Assembly (NCBI RefSeq): GCF_016907925.1
Contig: NZ_JAFBCZ010000045.1
Coordinates: 1-33,507, forward strand
Direction of reading: 5' to 3'
DNA length: 33,507 nt
Source of the DNA: Herpetosiphon giganteus
GTDB taxonomy: Bacteria > Chloroflexota > Chloroflexia > Chloroflexales > Herpetosiphonaceae
The notes under the pieces are model-generated. The model had not been told where the DNA came from, searched no databases, and saw only the letters and a program-made list of their open reading frames with translations. The translations under genes and the position numbers were made by a program. How positions within the stretch are numbered: position 1 is the first letter of the stretch; the number at the start of each line of letters is the position of its first letter. Below are positions 80-6,334 of the stretch, in pieces.

Positions 80-716
80 GTCCGCCCTTAAACGTCGTCG
101 GGGCAGTGAGTTGAACCAGGGTTGAATATGCGTTTCTGGGATACAACCCGTCGTTTTAAACCCCTCGTCGTCGGGGCAGTGAGTTGAACCAGGGTGTACA
201 TAAATGGGAAACCAGTCGACAGTTCAAGTTTTAAACCCCTCGTCGTCGGGGCAGTGAGTTGAACCAGGGTGTACATAAATGGGAAACCAGTCGACAGTTC
301 AAGTTTTAAACCCCTCGTCGTCGGGGCAGTGAGTTGAACCGGATTTCAAGATTGCCATCCGTAATCCAACATTTTCGGTGTTTTAAACCCCTCGTCGTCG
401 GGGCAGTGAGTTGAACGTCGGTAGTATTTGAAGCAGTCAAGAATGAGTACTTTTAGTTTTAAACCCCTCCACGGCGGGGCCGTGAGATGAACGCGAGAAC
501 ACCCCCACGGCGATGACCCGGCACCTGGCTCGTTTTAAACCCCTCGCGGTCGGGGCCGTGAGATGAACACGGAGTGCCAGAACGGCAGGGCGCTGGTTGT
601 ACGGGTTTTAAACCCCGCGCGGTCGGGGCCGTGAGATGAACCGGACTTGGACGGGCGGCGAGTACGCTACATGCTCATCGTTTTAAACCCCTCGCCGTCG
701 GGGCAGTGAGATGAAC
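80..716 (-). CRISPR. CRISPR array 1, nine 37-bp repeats and eight spacers
   Basis: Repeats begin at 80 (degenerate), 153, 228, 303, 380, 456, 532, 605 and 680; each starts gttttaaacccc and ends gtgagttgaac or gtgagatgaac on the plus strand. Spacers are 36, 38, 38, 40, 39, 39, 36 and 38 bp. The repeat at 80 has lost its left third, the usual mark of the distal (trailer) end. The right flank matches the flank of the second array, so I place the leader on the right and infer transcription on the minus strand. Spacers at 190-227 and 265-302 are identical. The repeat has a conserved cccc...gggg stem around a variable centre. The CRISPR subtype cannot be assigned because no effector gene is present. 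Confidence 0.97.
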
Positions 717-857
717 TCCTGTGTGTCCACTTTTGAAAATCAAGCAACTGCTCGCGCTGGTTGCTAGCCTGCTTGCATACCATAACAACTATGCCATGAA
801 GCACTATAAAAATTATGGTAAACTTAAGCAGCATTTTTCTCGCGTCTGTGTCCACCT
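717..857 (-). promoter_or_regulatory. CRISPR leader of array 1
   Basis: The sequence right of the last repeat matches, in reverse complement, the flank of array 2. Shared parts are the array-proximal stretch reading agtggacacacagga, a 16-bp block (ttaagtttaccataat on the minus strand, 812-827) and a distal gtggac box. The proximal box lies at 725-730 and the distal box at 850-855, 125 bp apart as in the other leader. The region must also hold the promoter of the divergent gene that starts at 870. Confidence 0.8.
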
Positions 858-869
858 AAAGGATTCATT

Positions 870-2676
870 ATGCTCTATTCTCGCATACCTGTCAAGCTCT
901 CTGCAAGCCGTGCCTTGGCCCACGTACCGATTCGCACCTTGCGCACCCTCGCCCATTATAGCCACATTCGTCGTGAACGAATGCAAACCCGCCTTGCACT
1001 GGCCGCTGCCATCCAGCAATATTGGGCAACCCCAGCTTATCGTCAGCTCATTCGGCGCTCGCTTACCGCTGCTGACCATGCGCTGTTGCACGCCCTTTGG
1101 CATGGCACGCAGCCCTTGCCCGCCGCCGAAACCCTCGATCTCTGGCGTTGGCACGCGCCATGGCAAGCGCTCGCCAGCCTCTCTTCGCTCCAACGGCTAG
1201 CGGTGCTGGGCTTGCTGCTACCCATCCGCACGCCGCATGGTCGGCACACGGTGTTGCTCCGCGATAGCACTCGCTGGGTACGCCGCACCCGTGCTATGCC
1301 ACCAACGCCCATTCCTGCTTCATTTCAAATGCTGTTTCAAACAGTTGCCGATGTGCTGATTCAGGGTTCGATCGATCCTCAATCGGCAGCAATAGCACCC
1401 TCGTTTGCGCGCACGCTTGCAGAGGCAGCTGGTTGGCTCGTGCTGCGGCTTGAGCAATGGCGCATCACGCCTCGTGGCGTTGCATGGCTCCAAGCCGACC
1501 TCGCCGAACAAACCCGCATGCTCCAACAGCAGATTGTGGGCTGTTCGCCGCCGAGCAGTGGGCTGCCTGCGTGGCGTAATCCCGATTGGGCTGGGTTGTG
1601 GCAAGCCCTCGTAGCGCTGATGGCGGATCAAACACCACGGCGAGTGGATGATGTGGTGGCGTTGCTCTGGGAGCATGCCGCGTGGGGCGGGTTGCCAGAC
1701 GATCAACGGAGGCAGCTGATGCAGCAGTGGTTGCGCGCGGTGCTCCAACCAGCAGGCGTGCTGAGCATCGCGCGGGGCTGGATATTTTGGCATGGCTGGG
1801 CTGCCGTAACGCTGGTTGCGCCCCCATTTGATGGCCTACTGCTCCCCGCAACAGCCCAATTACCGCCGCTGCTGCGCTGGTGGGCACTGGGGCCAGCCAA
1901 CCGACCATGGTTGGCGGCTTAGCGTGGCATCAATCCATACTCGGATGCAGCAGACTGGTGATGTGATGGGGTTTTGGGAGCCGCTCGATGCCTGGTATGC
2001 GCAACGCCCGTAAGCAGTGGAGGCAGCGCTGGCAACAGTCGTAGCTCGACCGCAGCTGCGCATGCGCCAAGTCACGCTGATCGAAGGTAGGAGTGAGGAT
2101 TTAACCGCCATGGCAGCGCAACGCGGCATGCGCGATCTGCTGCAATCGGGCTGGACTGCAACGCAGCGGGTAGTCCGAGCAGGCGCGGAGCCACAGGTTG
2201 CGCAGGCCATTGGCCTTGAAGCTCCGCGCCAGCATACACACGCCACCGATAACGAAACACTGGCGTTGGCGTTGCGCATTGCGGCGCAACAGGTTCCGCG
2301 CTATGCCACAGCGTTTCAGCACCAGGCCCAGCAGATCCTTGGTGATCTGACATTCGAGCAGCGCTGTGCGATCGATGCGCAGTGGGAGGCACTCGCGCCT
2401 CAATCCGCCAACGAGGATGGCACGCTTGGGGTTGGTCAACAGCCCTCGGCTATGATTACGGTCGAACAGGCACGCAAGGCCATGCATCAGGCAATTCGTG
2501 ATGGGCAAAGTTTGACCGTGCGCTATTACACACCGTCGGCCCATCGGATCACCACGCGCACGATTCGCCCGCTCGAACTGACCAGCACAGGGGTGCGCGG
2601 TTGGTGCGACTTGCGCCAAGAAGAGCGGGCTTTTCGCTTTGATTGTATATTGGCGATCGAGATTAATGCACGCTAA
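870..2676 (+). pseudogene. Broken XPB-like helicase-associated/WYL-domain gene
   Basis: An open frame from the ATG at 870 (AAAGGA a few bases upstream) runs 350 codons to a TAG at 1920-1922. The protein then continues in another frame, is cut by a TAA at 2011-2013, and reads on in that same frame to 2676. Joining the parts gives a long N-terminal region, a segment resembling the XPB/Ssl2-like N-terminal domain of bacterial helicase-associated proteins (VTLVAPPFDGLLLP, then WRLSVASIHTRMQQ across the shift, then LRMRQVTLIEG), and a C-terminal WYL domain (IRDGQSLTVRYYTP, then TIRPLEL, then GWCDLRQEERAFRFD). WYL proteins are known regulators near CRISPR-Cas loci and sense ligands or nucleic acid. 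The two lesions suggest decay, although a sequencing error at the frameshift is possible. The alternative is two adjacent genes, with the second starting at GTG 2017. The 3' end overlaps the convergent cas2 by 4 bp. Confidence 0.7.
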
Positions 2677-2951
2677 TCAGTCCAGTAGAAAATTGGGTCT
2701 TGGGTTACCACCCCATGCCCAAGAATGACGATTGCCGTCACCGCATCTTTGGGCAACGAATAAAAACGAATGCTATCTTCGTTGGGAACGATGATGGCAC
2801 TTAGTTGGCTGCGCACCTCGGACAATTGGATCGCGGTCAGATTGCATTCAAACACACTATATTGCACCCGTGTGCCGAAATTTTTGAGGGTTTTGGCAAT
2901 GCGGCTACGGCGTTTATCGTGGCGAATATCATAGCTAATCAAAATAAACAT
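2673..2951 (-). CDS. cas2: CRISPR-associated endoribonuclease/integration subunit Cas2
   Basis: This 92-residue protein has the full Cas2 ferredoxin-like fold signature: a first strand MFILISYDIRHDKRR with the conserved aspartate at residue 8, then RIAKTLKNFGTRVQYSVFEC, and later SIRFYSLP. The length is typical. Cas2 is the structural dimer in the Cas1-Cas2 complex that inserts new spacers at the leader end of CRISPR arrays. It lies 48 bp downstream of the truncated cas1 remnant in the normal cas1-cas2 order, so it was once part of an adaptation operon. With cas1 reduced to its C-terminus, this copy cannot support spacer acquisition alone, although it could act with a Cas1 encoded elsewhere. 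Its end overlaps the convergent WYL gene. Confidence 0.95.
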   Translation of the reverse strand: MFILISYDIRHDKRRSRIAKTLKNFGTRVQYSVFECNLTAIQLSEVRSQLSAIIVPNEDSIRFYSLPKDAVTAIVILGHGVVTQDPIFYWTD

Positions 2952-2999
2952 GCTCGATCCTCGTGTTGGTGGCGCGTATCGGTTAATGCAAGCTCGCCA

Positions 3000-3170
3000 T
3001 CAATCGCTCCAATAATAGGGCTGATAGCGTGGTTCCTCGGCTTGCACCACCCGCGCAAAATGCTGGGCTTGGAGCAACAGCACTCGTCGCAGTGGCTCGT
3101 TGTTGCCAGTTGCTTGATAGCGAATTGGGGTTTGCATGCGTTGTTCGGTCGAAACACTCCGCTCATTGCG
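3000..3170 (-). pseudogene. cas1: cas1 remnant, C-terminal ~56 codons only
   Basis: Read on the minus strand and ending with TGA at 3000-3002, this frame gives TEQRMQTPIRYQ, then GNNEPLRRVLLLQAQ, then HFARVVQAEEPRYQPYYWSD. That is the characteristic Cas1 C-terminus, where a basic helix is followed by an R..L.LQA..FAR segment. An in-frame TAG at 3171-3173 closes the frame upstream. The catalytic E-H-D residues of Cas1 lie further N-terminal and are absent, because the ~250 codons that should precede this piece cannot be found. It sits 48 bp upstream of cas2 on the same strand. There is no start codon of its own, so it is a relic. Confidence 0.85.
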
Positions 3171-3173
3171 CTA

Positions 3174-3661
3174 TCGCTCACGCAACCGCGCTACCGTCGA
3201 CGATAAAACATTAGCAATGTTGGTTTGGATTGCGCTCGCTGAAGGTCGGGCTTCGCTGCAATGGCTCAAAACGATCATGAGCGCCACCAGTCTCATTCTG
3301 CCTGAACCGCTGAATAGCTCATGGCTTGAACGCTATCTGCAAAGCCCGTTTAAACAACCGCTTGAACCAGTGTTGCTCAAGCAGGTTGTGTAGGGACTGA
3401 TTGGGATTGAATTGCCACACCACGCCATGCTGGTCACAGCGCAATTAGCGCAACATCCAAAATCCGTTAACGTAGCGTTTAAGCTGCTAACCATGGTGAT
3501 CGTGCTGCTCATTATGGGAGTCCTCATGCTCTAGCAGCATTGGGCTTTCTGCGCTAGAATTGGAGCTATGCGTAAACAACGGCGTTCGGATGAGCGTCGT
3601 TGTTTGCTGAATGGAAACACCATAGGCCAGCATGCTTCACAGAATGTGTATACTTGAAAAA
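3174..3661 (+). other. Unassigned stretch between cas1 relic and leader 2
   Basis: No convincing gene is seen. A plus-strand frame from about 3195 to 3393 (with SSWLERYLQSPFKQPLEPVL) continues past a TAG at 3391-3393 as GLIGIELPHHAMLVTAQL to a second stop near 3531. This looks like the worn end of a coding sequence of unknown family. At 3574-3605 there is an 11-bp inverted repeat (aaacaacggcg against cgtcgttgttt, one mismatch) with a 10-nt loop and no following T-run. Confidence 0.4.
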
Positions 3662-3800
3662 GTGGACCCCTTATTCTACCTAGTCGAGATTAAGTTTACC
3701 ATAATAAATTCCAGGCTTAAATAGTGCTTGTCTATGGTCAATGAACAACCCTGCATGTATCTACCAGCGCACACTCATTTTAAAAAGTGGACACACAGGA
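3662..3800 (+). promoter_or_regulatory. CRISPR leader of array 2
   Basis: This is an inverted copy of the leader of array 1. It contains the distal gtggac box at 3662-3667, the conserved block ttaagtttaccataat at 3690-3705 and the proximal box agtggacacacagga ending at 3800. The proximal box and the conserved block are 82 bp apart and the two boxes 125 bp apart, exactly as in leader 1. The shared spacing sets the transcription direction of both arrays. Confidence 0.8.
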
Positions 3801-4047
3801 GTTCATCTCACTGCCCCGCCGTGGAGGGGTTTAAAACGTTGGTGTCGCGGACGGCGTTCGCGTTACCGTTGGGTTCATCTCACGGCCCCGCCGTGGAGGG
3901 GTTTAAAACTCATTCTCCCCCCAGAAGAGATCCCCTTCGGGTTTTGTTCATCTCACTGCCCCGCCGTGGAGGGGTTTAAAACGCAAGCTAGTTCCAGCCT
4001 GTAACCAAGTGCCGGTTCGTTCATCTCACTGCCCCGACGTGGAGGAG
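3801..4047 (+). CRISPR. CRISPR array 2, three full repeats plus a truncated terminal repeat
   Basis: Full 37-bp repeats lie at 3801, 3873 and 3946 (beginning gttcatctca and ending gtttaaaac). A fourth at 4019 matches only its first ~29 bp before running into unrelated sequence, as expected of the trailer end. Spacers are 35, 36 and 36 bp. The repeat is the reverse complement of the leader-proximal variant in array 1 (the ctccacggc centre). The leader is on the left, so the array is transcribed rightward, away from array 1. Confidence 0.95.
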
Positions 4048-4400
4048 AACGTATGGCTTTTGGCTTTTGGCTTTTGGCTAGCGGAGGCAGGGTGGATACT
4101 TTATAAATTCGGGCTGATAGGCAATAATCTGTGCTAATCTGTGGCTAAAAATAATGTCATTCGTGGAATTCGTGGCTAAACTTTAACGCAGAGGCGCAGA
4201 GAACGGATGGTGATGGGCTATTGGCTTTGGAGAATAAGAATCTGAGCTAATCTGTGTCAATCTGTGGCTAAAAATAATGATTATTCGTGTTCTCAAAAGC
4301 CAATCCCCTGTAGCCGATAGCCAATAGCCAATAGCCGTATTCTCTTTCGTGGATAAACAAAACAATGGGGATTGAGCTAGTCCCAGCCCGATCTCGTTAT
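4048..4400. repeat. Intergenic phrase-repeat cluster
   Basis: This gap is made of short repeated phrases: ggcttttggctttt, aatctgtgctaatctgtgg, attcgtggaattcgtgg, ttaacgcagaggcgcagag, agccaatagccaatagcc, and the block ggataaacaaaacaatgggg with an imperfect hairpin (about 4365-4392). The block 4126-4201 recurs almost exactly at 6103-6178, and the hairpin block recurs at 6290-6334. No gene is seen here. Confidence 0.8.
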
Positions 4401-4454: not shown

Positions 4455-4490
4455 ACGAGAGATCCTAGTTTATGAGTGAGGACAGGAACC

Positions 4491-5948
4491 ATGCGCAAAG
4501 CTTGGTGGATTGGGTTTTGTGGCCTATTGAGCGCTTTATACTTGCTTGTAGCGTGTTCAGCACCACAGATTAGTAGCAGTCAGACCGATCAAATCACCCC
4601 AACATTGACCCAGACAGGCCCTTTAACAATTACGATAACCACCGATTTGCAAGCCACATCGTTAACCAATCCCTTAGTGCTGACCCAAACTGAGCCATTA
4701 GTTTGGTTGGCCTTAACCAAAAAAGATCCTGAGGCAATTCATTTGACTTCTGCAGAGGTTGGGGTTGAGGAAAGTATTTATCCTGCACCACTGCTTGCGA
4801 TCAATGGGTTAGGCCAGCAAACCATGATTACCACCGAAACTGAGGGGTTGATCTATCGGGAACAAGGATTGCCCTTGCCTATCCTCTATCGGCCAAATCC
4901 GCTGCCTGACCAACCATTTGCAGCTCAAGTATTGACTGATCATGTCGAGATTTCGTGGCGCAGACACTTTCAATTTTCACCCAAGCTTGATTATGTAGCG
5001 ATGCGAACTTTTAGTTTGGGAGCAACCAGTTTAGAGGATAGGAATCGACTTGAGCTAATCAATCTGCAAACAGGGGCTAGGCAGGTATTGCACGAATCTC
5101 AAGGAAACCTGAAGGTTACTGACTGGTTTATTGGTTGGACTGCGAGTGGCATTTATGAACTCTCTTCAATCAATGGACCAATGTCATCGGCATCAATTAG
5201 GTTCTTTGATCCAACCCAAGCTGATCCACTCAAGCAATCAATTCAGCTTAGTGGCGAAGGTGGAATGGGCGACACGTTTTTAGATATTGAGCATGGCTTA
5301 TTGGCCCATGGCGGCAGCTCTTGGCACCCCGCCTTTGGAGTTAAGAATCTGCAAACCGAGACCGATCTGATTATTGGGCAGAACACTGATACAACCGACA
5401 TTGACAATCTATCGATTTCGCCAGATGCTCGTTATTTAGCCTATCTCTATCATCCCACGGTAAGTGATGCTGTTGAGCCAACGTCGGGTACGATTCGCTT
5501 ATATTCAATTGAACAGCAACAGCCATTGGGTGATTTGGCAACGGGCATTAATCCGGATATGGTGCGCCAGCGTTTTGACCATCATAGCTCACCTTTTGAT
5601 CCTACGATGATGCTCTGGACACCAGATAGTCAGTATCTTTTGGCCCTCAGTTGCGATCCCCGCACTCCATGGCAATGGCGACCTATCGGTCCAAGCTGTG
5701 ATGCAGCTTCGCCAATTCAACAGCAACGGCAGGGCTTAGTTTTCCGCCTCGCTGATCAGCAACAATTAACGACAATTGTTGTGCCTGCGCATACTGGCTC
5801 GATTAAATTGGTTAGCCCCACGCTGCTCGGAATGATTGCCTATGTTGATAACCAAGCCTTGCTGATTTTTTGCGATATTGTGACAGGCCGACAAACCGTG
5901 CCGCTTGCACTTGGCAAGGTTATCCCTGTGATTGTTTATCCTCATTGA
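4491..5948 (+). CDS. Beta-propeller (TolB/WD40-like) lipoprotein, function unknown
   Basis: The protein is 485 residues. I chose the ATG at 4491 over the in-frame GTG at 4476 because it opens a clean lipoprotein signal: MRKAWW, a hydrophobic run, and a lipobox LVAC with Cys22. A Thr/Gln-rich spacer follows. The body contains beta-propeller-like blades with SPDARYLAYLY and LWTPDSQYLLAL (the xxPDxxxLA pattern typical of TolB-type repeats) plus blade-end sheets such as IRLYSIEQQQPLGDL. It is therefore expected on the outer face of the cytoplasmic membrane, presumably binding a ligand or protein partner. No catalytic motif is seen. It is monocistronic, with its own extended -10 promoter, and lies between two repeat clusters. 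A second lipoprotein of the same general design is at 22220, but the two are not obviously close paralogues. Confidence 0.8.
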   Translation: MRKAWWIGFCGLLSALYLLVACSAPQISSSQTDQITPTLTQTGPLTITITTDLQATSLTNPLVLTQTEPLVWLALTKKDPEAIHLTSAEVGVEESIYPAPLLAINGLGQQTMITTETEGLIYREQGLPLPILYRPNPLPDQPFAAQVLTDHVEISWRRHFQFSPKLDYVAMRTFSLGATSLEDRNRLELINLQTGARQVLHESQGNLKVTDWFIGWTASGIYELSSINGPMSSASIRFFDPTQADPLKQSIQLSGEGGMGDTFLDIEHGLLAHGGSSWHPAFGVKNLQTETDLIIGQNTDTTDIDNLSISPDARYLAYLYHPTVSDAVEPTSGTIRLYSIEQQQPLGDLATGINPDMVRQRFDHHSSPFDPTMMLWTPDSQYLLALSCDPRTPWQWRPIGPSCDAASPIQQQRQGLVFRLADQQQLTTIVVPAHTGSIKLVSPTLLGMIAYVDNQALLIFCDIVTGRQTVPLALGKVIPVIVYPH

Positions 5949-6290
5949 AGAGTAGAATCTAGAGCAAAGAACATAGAACATAGACGTTGCAAATAATCAA
6001 AAGATCATTCTGGCAATTCAAAGCGAAAAATTTAACGCAGCGGTGCAGAGAACGTATGGCTTTGAGCTATTGACTTTGGGCTAAGAGGAACATAATCAAA
6101 TAAATCTGTGCTAATCTGTGGCTAAAAATAATGTCATTCGTGGAATTCGTGGCTAAATTTTAACGCAGCGGCGCAGAGGGATGAAGAGCATAGAGCATAG
6201 AACATAATCCTAAAAATCTGTGGCTAAAAACTTCGCCCTCTTCGCGTCCTTCGCGGTTTCATCCCTTCGTGCGCTTCGTGCGCTTCGTGG
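5949..6290. repeat. Intergenic phrase-repeat cluster
   Basis: Immediately after the stop codon come agaacatagaacatag (5967-5982) and then taacgcagcggtgcagag. Next is the 76-bp block shared with 4126-4201, followed by agagcatagagcatagaac and tcgcgtccttcgcgg/tcgtgcgcttcgtgcgc phrases. No gene is seen. Confidence 0.8.
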
Positions 6291-6334
6291 ATAAACAAAA
6301 CAATGGGGATCGAGCTTGTACCAGCCCGATCCCC
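6290..6334 (-). terminator. Terminator of the sdhCAB operon
   Basis: On the minus strand a 12-bp stem (ggggatcgggct against agctcgatcccc, one mismatch) with a short loop at 6305-6334 is followed by the T-rich run attgttttgttt. It lies 27 bp after the sdhB stop. The same hairpin and flank occur in the repeat cluster at about 4350-4395. Confidence 0.65.

What the first reader, a model, noticed from the sequence alone, without database searches (positions are those of the whole stretch)
717..3800. Leader copies share boxes at fixed spacing
Both leaders carry a proximal gtggac box and a distal one 125 bp away. A 16-bp block (ttaagtttaccataat) begins 82 bp from the proximal box in both, although the sequence between has diverged. 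Conserved spacing in otherwise diverged sequence points to function: a promoter, or a binding site for the integration complex or a host factor.
Basis: seen in the sequence. Interest (0 to 1): 0.55.

Follow-up and report, generated by a model that had tools for sequence, protein, structure and literature searches.

The report
Phased motif platform in CRISPR leaders
The control regions in front of two CRISPR arrays carry short DNA motifs at strictly fixed distances, and the same design recurs in front of about two dozen arrays with different repeats across the genus Herpetosiphon, so it is probably the start signal for transcription joined to the docking site where new immune memories are inserted.

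Summary
Both window leaders carry GTGGAC 14 and 139 bp before the repeat and an identical 16-bp block starting 111 bp before it. Boxes are 80% alike, the rest 35%. Seventeen other-family arrays or array pieces lack the pattern.

Best reading: the distal end (TTGACA-N4-TGnTAnAnT) is the array promoter; the rigid 106 bp down to the repeat is a docking platform for the Cas1-Cas2 integrase with a DNA-bending partner. The window's own module is decayed (48-residue cas1 end, cas2, split WYL gene); complete ones with RNase H-like protein, RT, Cas1 and Cas2 stand beside such leaders in two species. Against it: that Cas1 is missing in the other four. Nothing was tested at the bench.

The parts
80..716 (-). 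CRISPR array 1 (9 repeat copies of 37 nt, read from 716 towards 80; the copy at 80 is degenerate)
717..734 (-). Leader 1 proximal box AAAAGTGGACACACAGGA, abutting the first repeat
   Evidence: 18/18 identical to leader 2
762..764 (-). Leader 1 GCA element (-34..-32); A at -32 in 25 of 25 leaders
779..782 (-). Leader 1 TGGT box (-52); TGG in 24 of 25 leaders
812..822 (-). Leader 1 mid block TTTACCATAAT (-92)
846..854 (-). Leader 1 distal box TGGACACAG (-124)
877..895 (-). Leader 1 promoter-like element TTGACAGGTATGCGAGAAT (-165), antisense inside the start of the WYL ORF; one mismatch to TTGACA-N4-TGnTAnAnT
870..2676 (+). WYL-domain gene, divergent from leader 1, broken into two ORFs (870-1922, 2017-2676)
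2673..2951 (-). cas2 (84% identical to the Cas2 of the complete module in L054)
3003..3146 (-). cas1 remnant: last 48 residues, 90% identical to the RT-linked Cas1 of L054
3636..3654 (+). Leader 2 promoter-like element TTCACAGAATGTGTATACT (-151), two mismatches
3663..3671 (+). Leader 2 distal box TGGACCCCT (-124), core TGGAC only
3695..3705 (+). Leader 2 mid block TTTACCATAAT (-92)
3735..3738 (+). Leader 2 TGGT box (-52)
3753..3755 (+). Leader 2 GCA element (-34)
3783..3800 (+). Leader 2 proximal box AAAAGTGGACACACAGGA, abutting the first repeat
3801..4045 (+). CRISPR array 2 (3 full repeats and a truncated fourth)

Best explanation
The two stretches are copies of one CRISPR leader type of Herpetosiphon with two functional ends. 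Distal end (inferred from sequence): an extended -10-type promoter, TTGACA-N4-TGnTAnAnT, which would start transcription towards the array roughly 130-155 bp before the first repeat. Proximal part (inferred): from the mid block (106 bp before the repeat) through the TGG box (66 bp before) and the GCA and GAGC elements to AAAAGTGGACACAGAGGA at the leader-repeat junction, the DNA is a fixed-length scaffold. The Cas1-Cas2 integrase docks at the junction and also contacts upstream boxes brought near by a DNA-bending protein such as HU, so that new spacers enter at the first repeat. The repeated TGGACACA box and near whole-turn spacings (TGG to proximal TGG 53 bp = 5.0 turns; distal to proximal 123-127 bp, mostly 125 bp = 11.9 turns, at 10.5 bp per turn) suggest the same protein, or two copies of it, on one face of the helix. 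Shown: the boxes, their fixed spacing, their restriction to leaders of this type in what was searched, and the RT-Cas1-Cas2 module beside some of them. Not shown: any binding, transcription or spacer acquisition.
For: Ungapped profile of 15 non-redundant leaders: conserved columns TTgAC.ATAAT (-92..-82), TGGtca (-52), GCA (-34), C (-26), GAGCaG (-20), AAAAGTGGACACAGAGG; these box columns average 0.80 pairwise identity against 0.35 elsewhere (boxes picked on the same data). The mid block starts at -92 in 23 of 25 leaders and 1 bp off in the other 2. Found only at arrays genome-wide (within their candidate limits); 17 arrays or pieces of other repeat families, 30 flanks, lack it. The same leader stands before at least ten different repeats. 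Complete module (RNase H-like protein, two unknown proteins, RT, Cas1, Cas2) with a divergent WYL gene next to such a leader and array in G003 and G001; remnants in the window. The upstream element: at most one mismatch in 23 of 25 leaders; 35 exact hits in 6 genomes against 5 for the reversed control, 14 of the 35 in leaders by my count; of 21 non-leader sites 19 were read, and in 16 an ORF of 128 aa or more starts 33-92 bp downstream (no random control for that). No consensus RNA fold on the given strand; no reading frame open in all leaders. Two HU/IHF-family genes in this genome. Precedents: PMC9456107 (start of abstract and passages), PMC10212523 (passages).
Against: The RT-linked Cas1 is found intact in only 2 of 6 species, yet leaders are kept in the other 4 (6, 4, 3 and 2 of them). 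Either loss is recent (the window remnant is 90% identical), another Cas1 works in trans, or the function is not integration. Related RT-linked modules in other Chloroflexia have arrays whose leaders (9 used of 13) show a -10-like element and a short leader end but no rigid multi-box pattern in an ungapped profile of low power, so the module as such does not seem to need it. The proximal box was part of the search that found 24 of the 26 leaders, so its conservation is partly ascertained. The distal box is weak in 4 of 25. One array leader (G002:C1:365981) lacks the mid block and TGG box. M. mediterranea RT-Cas1 integrates in vitro with a 20- or 40-bp leader (PMC11014452, passages). No transcription start is mapped.
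Confidence: 0.6

Rival explanations
1. The whole conserved block is a transcription control region: the boxes are operator sites, for instance for the divergent WYL-domain protein or another regulator, and they set array and WYL expression. Integration does not use them.
For: A WYL gene lies divergently beside several of these leaders (window, L023, L052, L053, L054, L107, L108). A promoter-like element is present in 23 of 25 leaders at one mismatch or less. Leaders are kept where the RT-linked Cas1 is gone.
Against: In the fetched stretches around leaders with TTGACATAAT-type mid blocks (L050, L112, L113, L114, L116, L126, L127, L128, L131) a tblastn search with the WYL protein found nothing, yet they keep the same boxes and spacing. 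Rigid spacing right up to the repeat edge is hard to explain for an operator.
Confidence: 0.2
2. Shared ancestry only: the leaders were copied together with arrays, and the boxes are what has not yet diverged.
For: Some pairs are close, for example G000d and G001a at 92%. In one orthologous pair boxes are kept no better than the rest (G001d/G003b, 30 of 41 against 58 of 82).
Against: Among 15 non-redundant leaders other columns are at 0.35 identity while boxes are at 0.80 (boxes chosen on the same data). In the other 10 of 11 pairs the boxes are better kept by 17 points or more.
Confidence: 0.06
3. The leader encodes a structured RNA or a small peptide, and spacing is fixed by that product.
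For: Length is nearly invariant over more than 100 bp.
Against: RNAalifold finds 0 consensus pairs on the given strand of 23 leaders (the other strand was not folded). No frame on either strand is open in all 24 leaders; stops occur in 15 to 24 of 24 depending on frame.
Confidence: 0.04

Closest known systems
Subtype I-A leader of Sulfolobus islandicus: Csa3a distal motif plus Cas1 proximal motif (PMC9456107; start of abstract and passages seen)
   Same: A distal leader motif (-143 to -94 from the repeat) and a proximal one (-25 to +7) both matter for spacer acquisition; the distances resemble those here (139 and 14 bp).
   Different: There the distal motif binds Csa3a. Here no binder is known, the distal and proximal boxes share one sequence, and more boxes lie between.
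Cyanobacterial subtype I-D leader motifs I-III (Kieper 2019, not held; seen as described in PMC10212523, passages)
   Same: Several conserved motifs in a long leader enhance spacer uptake; an anchoring motif and a bending-factor site are proposed.
   Different: Different host and genes; motif sequences could not be compared because the paper is not held.
IHF-folded leaders of subtypes I-E and I-F (PMC12259127, passages; the motif survey by Santiago-Frangos 2021 seen only as a reference)
   Same: Leader motifs and a bending protein position a folded leader on Cas1-Cas2.
   Different: No IHF site was sought or identified here; the integrase is the type linked to a separate RT.
Type II-A leader-end motifs (PMC5382924; abstract read)
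   [quoted passage not shown] here conservation runs for more than 100 bp.
In trans adaptation between CRISPR loci in Flavobacterium columnare (PMC8092290; passages)
   Same: An array without its own Cas1 is served by the Cas1 of another locus despite different repeats.
   Different: There the leader-repeat junctions differ and only poly(A)/poly(T) regions are shared; here the leaders share an exact set of boxes. No acquisition was tested here.

Membership tests
CRISPR leader | Lies directly beside the first repeat of a repeat-spacer array, at the end opposite the degenerate repeat | tested here: met
   Both window leaders touch an intact repeat; the degenerate or truncated repeat is at the other end
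CRISPR leader | Contains the array promoter | tested here: inconclusive
   Promoter-like element in 23 of 25 leaders at one mismatch or less, and before other ORFs; no transcript data
CRISPR leader | Needed for polarised spacer acquisition | not testable with these tools
   Needs an acquisition assay
Leader with phased upstream motifs for Cas1-Cas2 | Motifs at fixed distances from the leader-repeat junction across diverged leaders | tested here: met
   25 leaders: mid block within 1 bp of -92 in 25, TGG at -52 in 24; a 26th, degenerate leader lacks both
Leader with phased upstream motifs for Cas1-Cas2 | Motifs contact the integrase or a bending protein | not testable with these tools
   No binding data; two HU/IHF-family genes present
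RT-associated CRISPR adaptation module of Chloroflexi (RT-CRISPR-9 of PMC5541045, RT separate from Cas1) | Separate RT gene beside cas1 | tested here: met
   Met in G003 and G001 beside such a leader, and in 20 of 20 loci read out of 27 related Cas1 places outside the genus. In the window itself only cas2 and a cas1 remnant remain.
RT-associated CRISPR adaptation module of Chloroflexi (RT-CRISPR-9 of PMC5541045, RT separate from Cas1) | RT falls in clade 9 of the published RT tree | not tested
   No tree was built

The most novel reading that the evidence does not exclude
A portable, repeat-independent landing platform: one leader of fixed geometry, with the same TGGACACA box at the junction and about 12 helical turns upstream, lets one RT-linked Cas1-Cas2 integrase serve in trans many solo arrays with different repeats scattered over the genome, by closing a DNA loop between the two boxes.
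Probability: 0.25. Interest if true: 0.65.

Novelty: new member of a known kind. Interest (0 to 1): 0.45.

Why it matters
It gives a natural mutation series for a CRISPR leader: about 25 leaders of one design, strongly diverged outside the conserved boxes, including those of the type strain genome H. aurantiacus DSM 785. That makes it testable which leader positions an RT-linked Cas1-Cas2 reads, whether leader rather than repeat identity decides where spacers go, and how solo arrays far from any matching cas1 are kept in use.

Tried and rejected
RNA structure: RNAalifold on the 23-leader alignment predicts no pairs (given strand only). Coding: no frame open in all 24 leaders. A mid block acting as -35 box: no consistent -10 follows it (judged by eye; no statistic). 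Wider distribution: exact-pattern scans of genome contigs (9 stretches: 8 Herpetosiphon, 1 Anaerolineales MAG) and viral contigs (5 stretches); in the 200 bp printed after each of the 6 non-Herpetosiphon hits no repeat-spacer array is visible by eye. tRNA genes near promoter-like sites: 0 in 20 loci, one of them a leader locus. A gene shared by all arrays without WYL: none seen; orthologous neighbours occur in subsets only. The same profile in leaders of other Chloroflexia: no rigid boxes (13 loci with arrays of 20 fetched, L244 lost by the script's pattern, L232, L240 and L245 dropped as near duplicates, 9 used). I first took the shared array ends of one set (set 1) as orthologous trailers; they are insertion-element ends, so orthology there rests on the upstream neighbour gene.

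Rows dropped before counts: G002:C1:365981 (L062; distal TGGAC at -71, no mid block, no TGG box) is left out of all 'of 25' counts. In one search, 24 leaders gave 16 clusters and 15 representatives. Arrays with the same or similar repeats but no readable leader: L021 (contig end), L055 and L056 (leader side is an insertion-element end near the contig end), L050:4528-5051 (split off by an insertion element). My array finder missed the array of G003:C49, which one search shows.
Full report
What was claimed and what is there. The two leaders of the window were compared from the repeat edge outwards. In both, GTGGAC starts 14 and 139 bp from the repeat and TTAAGTTTACCATAAT starts 111 bp from it. 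The last 18 bp before the repeat are identical. The sequence between is unrelated: 29 of 82 non-box columns match against 36 of 41 box columns. The arrays point away from each other: array 1 runs from 716 down to 80 and array 2 from 3801 to 4045. The leaders lie at the ends facing each other.

What lies between the arrays. A WYL-domain gene (870-2676, broken into two ORFs), cas2 (2673-2951, minus strand) and the last 48 residues of a cas1 (3003-3146, minus strand). The cas1 remnant is 90% identical to a Cas1 in another Herpetosiphon genome, G003, where the order is RNase H-like protein (RVT_3), two proteins without a Pfam match, reverse transcriptase, a third such protein, Cas1, Cas2, a divergent WYL gene, a leader of this type, and an array. 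The window is therefore best read as the ruin of an RT-linked adaptation module.

The same leader elsewhere. A pattern search for AAGTGGACACAGAGG with up to two mismatches gave 39 hits in all 6 genus genomes against 4 for the reversed control. By my count 25 of the 39 are proximal boxes that touch a repeat, 3 are distal boxes of such leaders, and 11 are neither. From 23 leaders (positions -100 to +14) a sequence-only model was built. In the 6 genomes it finds 26 places, 25 of them full length (150 of about 2,000-2,300 first-look candidates were scored per genome). Two of the 25 were not in the model (G003:C49, G003:C29); both abut arrays. In 158 genomes of the class, with stricter filters, hits are confined to the same 6. 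An exact-pattern scan of the 84,980-species collection gave 9 stretches, 8 Herpetosiphon and 1 unrelated by eye; the pattern is narrower than the family.

Anatomy. Positions are from the G of the proximal GTGGAC, which is 14 bp before the repeat. In 25 leaders (the degenerate L062 excluded) the mid block starts at -92 in 23 and at -91 or -93 in 2; TGG is at -52 in 24; A is at -32 in 25; GTGGACAC is at 0 in 25; GAGC is at -20 in 13; the best TGGACACAG-like stretch is at -122 to -126 in 25, with at most 2 mismatches in 21. No other column between -120 and -1 has TGG in more than 5 of 25. The proximal box was part of the search for 24 of the 26 leaders, so its conservation is partly built in; the mid block, the TGG box and the distal box were not in the pattern. 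Mean pairwise column identity among 15 non-redundant leaders is 0.80 in boxes and 0.35 elsewhere; the boxes were chosen on the same data, but single columns exceed the 99.9% level of shuffled rows. The distal box is not resolved in that ungapped profile because its distance varies by a few bases.

Controls. Seventeen arrays or array pieces of other repeat families in the same genomes, with 30 readable flanks, have no proximal/distal pair and no mid block at these places; four isolated two-mismatch matches to TGGACACAG and three to the mid block occur elsewhere in them. The repeats served by this leader type vary in sequence, are about 37 nt long and end in AAAC or a near variant.

Promoter. 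An element TTGACA-N4-TGnTAnAnT lies upstream of the distal box, starting at -140 to -144, -150 to -152 or -165 to -166. Of the 25 leaders 23 match it with at most one mismatch, G000a with two and G003d (-149) with three. Exact matches in the 6 genomes number 35 against 5 for the reversed pattern; 14 of the 35 are in leaders by my count. Of the other 21, 19 were read: in 16 an ORF of 128 aa or more starts 33-92 bp downstream of the element's start, in 3 at 229-342 bp; one site, TTGACAGCTATGCTAGAGT, is present before the same 137-aa ORF in all 6 genomes. No random control was made for those distances. I read this as an extended -10 promoter; the distance from TTGACA to the -10 part is shorter than in the textbook sigma-70 promoter (recalled), so the role of TTGACA is open.

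Platform. The part from -92 to the repeat keeps its length almost without exception. RNA folding on the given strand and coding do not explain that. Fixed geometry ending at the leader-repeat junction is what a nucleoprotein complex for spacer integration would need. Precedents were read in passages: a distal Csa3a site and proximal Cas1 site in S. islandicus (PMC9456107), motifs I-III in subtype I-D leaders (PMC10212523), folded I-F leaders (PMC12259127). For M. mediterranea RT-Cas1 (PMC11014452, passages) integration in vitro used substrates with a 40-bp or 20-bp leader, so distant boxes are not needed by every RT-linked integrase.

Problems. Only G001 and G003 keep the matching Cas1; the other four species keep 6, 4, 3 and 2 leaders. 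Some of these genomes are drafts. In the short arrays compared I saw no spacer shared between species by eye, which fits acquisition since divergence but does not date it. Cas10-like genes occur in all 6 genomes (3-6 matches each at E <= 0.001, some below the family cut-off), none on the stretches read around leaders of this type, so the effector for these arrays is inferred to act in trans. RT-linked relatives in other Chloroflexia (20 loci read of 27 Cas1 places, all 20 with RT, Cas1 and Cas2) have leaders without this rigid pattern in a profile of 9, so the platform looks specific to Herpetosiphon in what was searched.

Literature. A search for Herpetosiphon with CRISPR array gave 3 papers; the two on RT-CRISPR were seen in passages and there treat RT phylogeny. 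Searches for leader motifs and for WYL with leaders gave listings. The leader motif surveys by Santiago-Frangos 2021 and Buyukyoruk 2025 are cited in a paper read in passages but not held, so I cannot say the motifs are unpublished.

Verdict. A real, genus-wide leader design, most likely promoter plus integration platform; a new member of a known kind, with unusual rigidity, a duplicated box and broad use across repeat sequences.

Noticed in passing
L050:5053-6987, L104:2239-4173; ends also in L023:8486, L052:3250, L053:11318, L131:15747, L132:15054: An insertion element (1935 bp in both complete copies; DDE transposase ORF in L050) sits inside CRISPR repeats at the same point, just before the GG.TTnAAAC end, in arrays of different repeat families; it looks like a transposon that targets CRISPR repeats. 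One literature search gave one paper, not read.
   Followed up: partly
L053:9599-11242, L109:11772-13412; ends also in L052, L055, L056: A second element (1641-1644 bp, ends GTATAAACA) is also inserted in CRISPR repeats at nearly the same point, in different repeat families.
   Followed up: partly
L054:76-6747 and 20 loci L231-L250: A relative of the RNase H-like (RVT_3) protein lies beside RT, cas1 and cas2 in all 20 related loci read; a relative of the 499-aa protein without Pfam match is seen in 13 of the 20. RNase H with RT-linked Cas1 would fit spacer capture from RNA.
   Followed up: partly
window 153-302: Two successive repeat-spacer units of 75 bp in array 1 are identical, a spacer duplication.
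   Followed up: no
window 4019-4050: The last repeat of array 2 breaks off at ...GTGGAGG, the same point where the insertion elements enter repeats elsewhere, and runs into dispersed intergenic repeat DNA; it may be a scar.
   Followed up: no
window 4045-4393 and 6027-6331: Similar blocks of dispersed repeats (AATCTGTGCTAATCTGTGGCTAAAAATAATG and others, 83-97% alike) flank the ORF 4476-5948 on both sides.
   Followed up: no
L058, L057 (repeats of G004 and G001): The CRISPR repeats CTTGGAATGGACACAATCC... and CTTAGAATGGACACAATCC... themselves contain TGGACACA, the leader box sequence.
   Followed up: no
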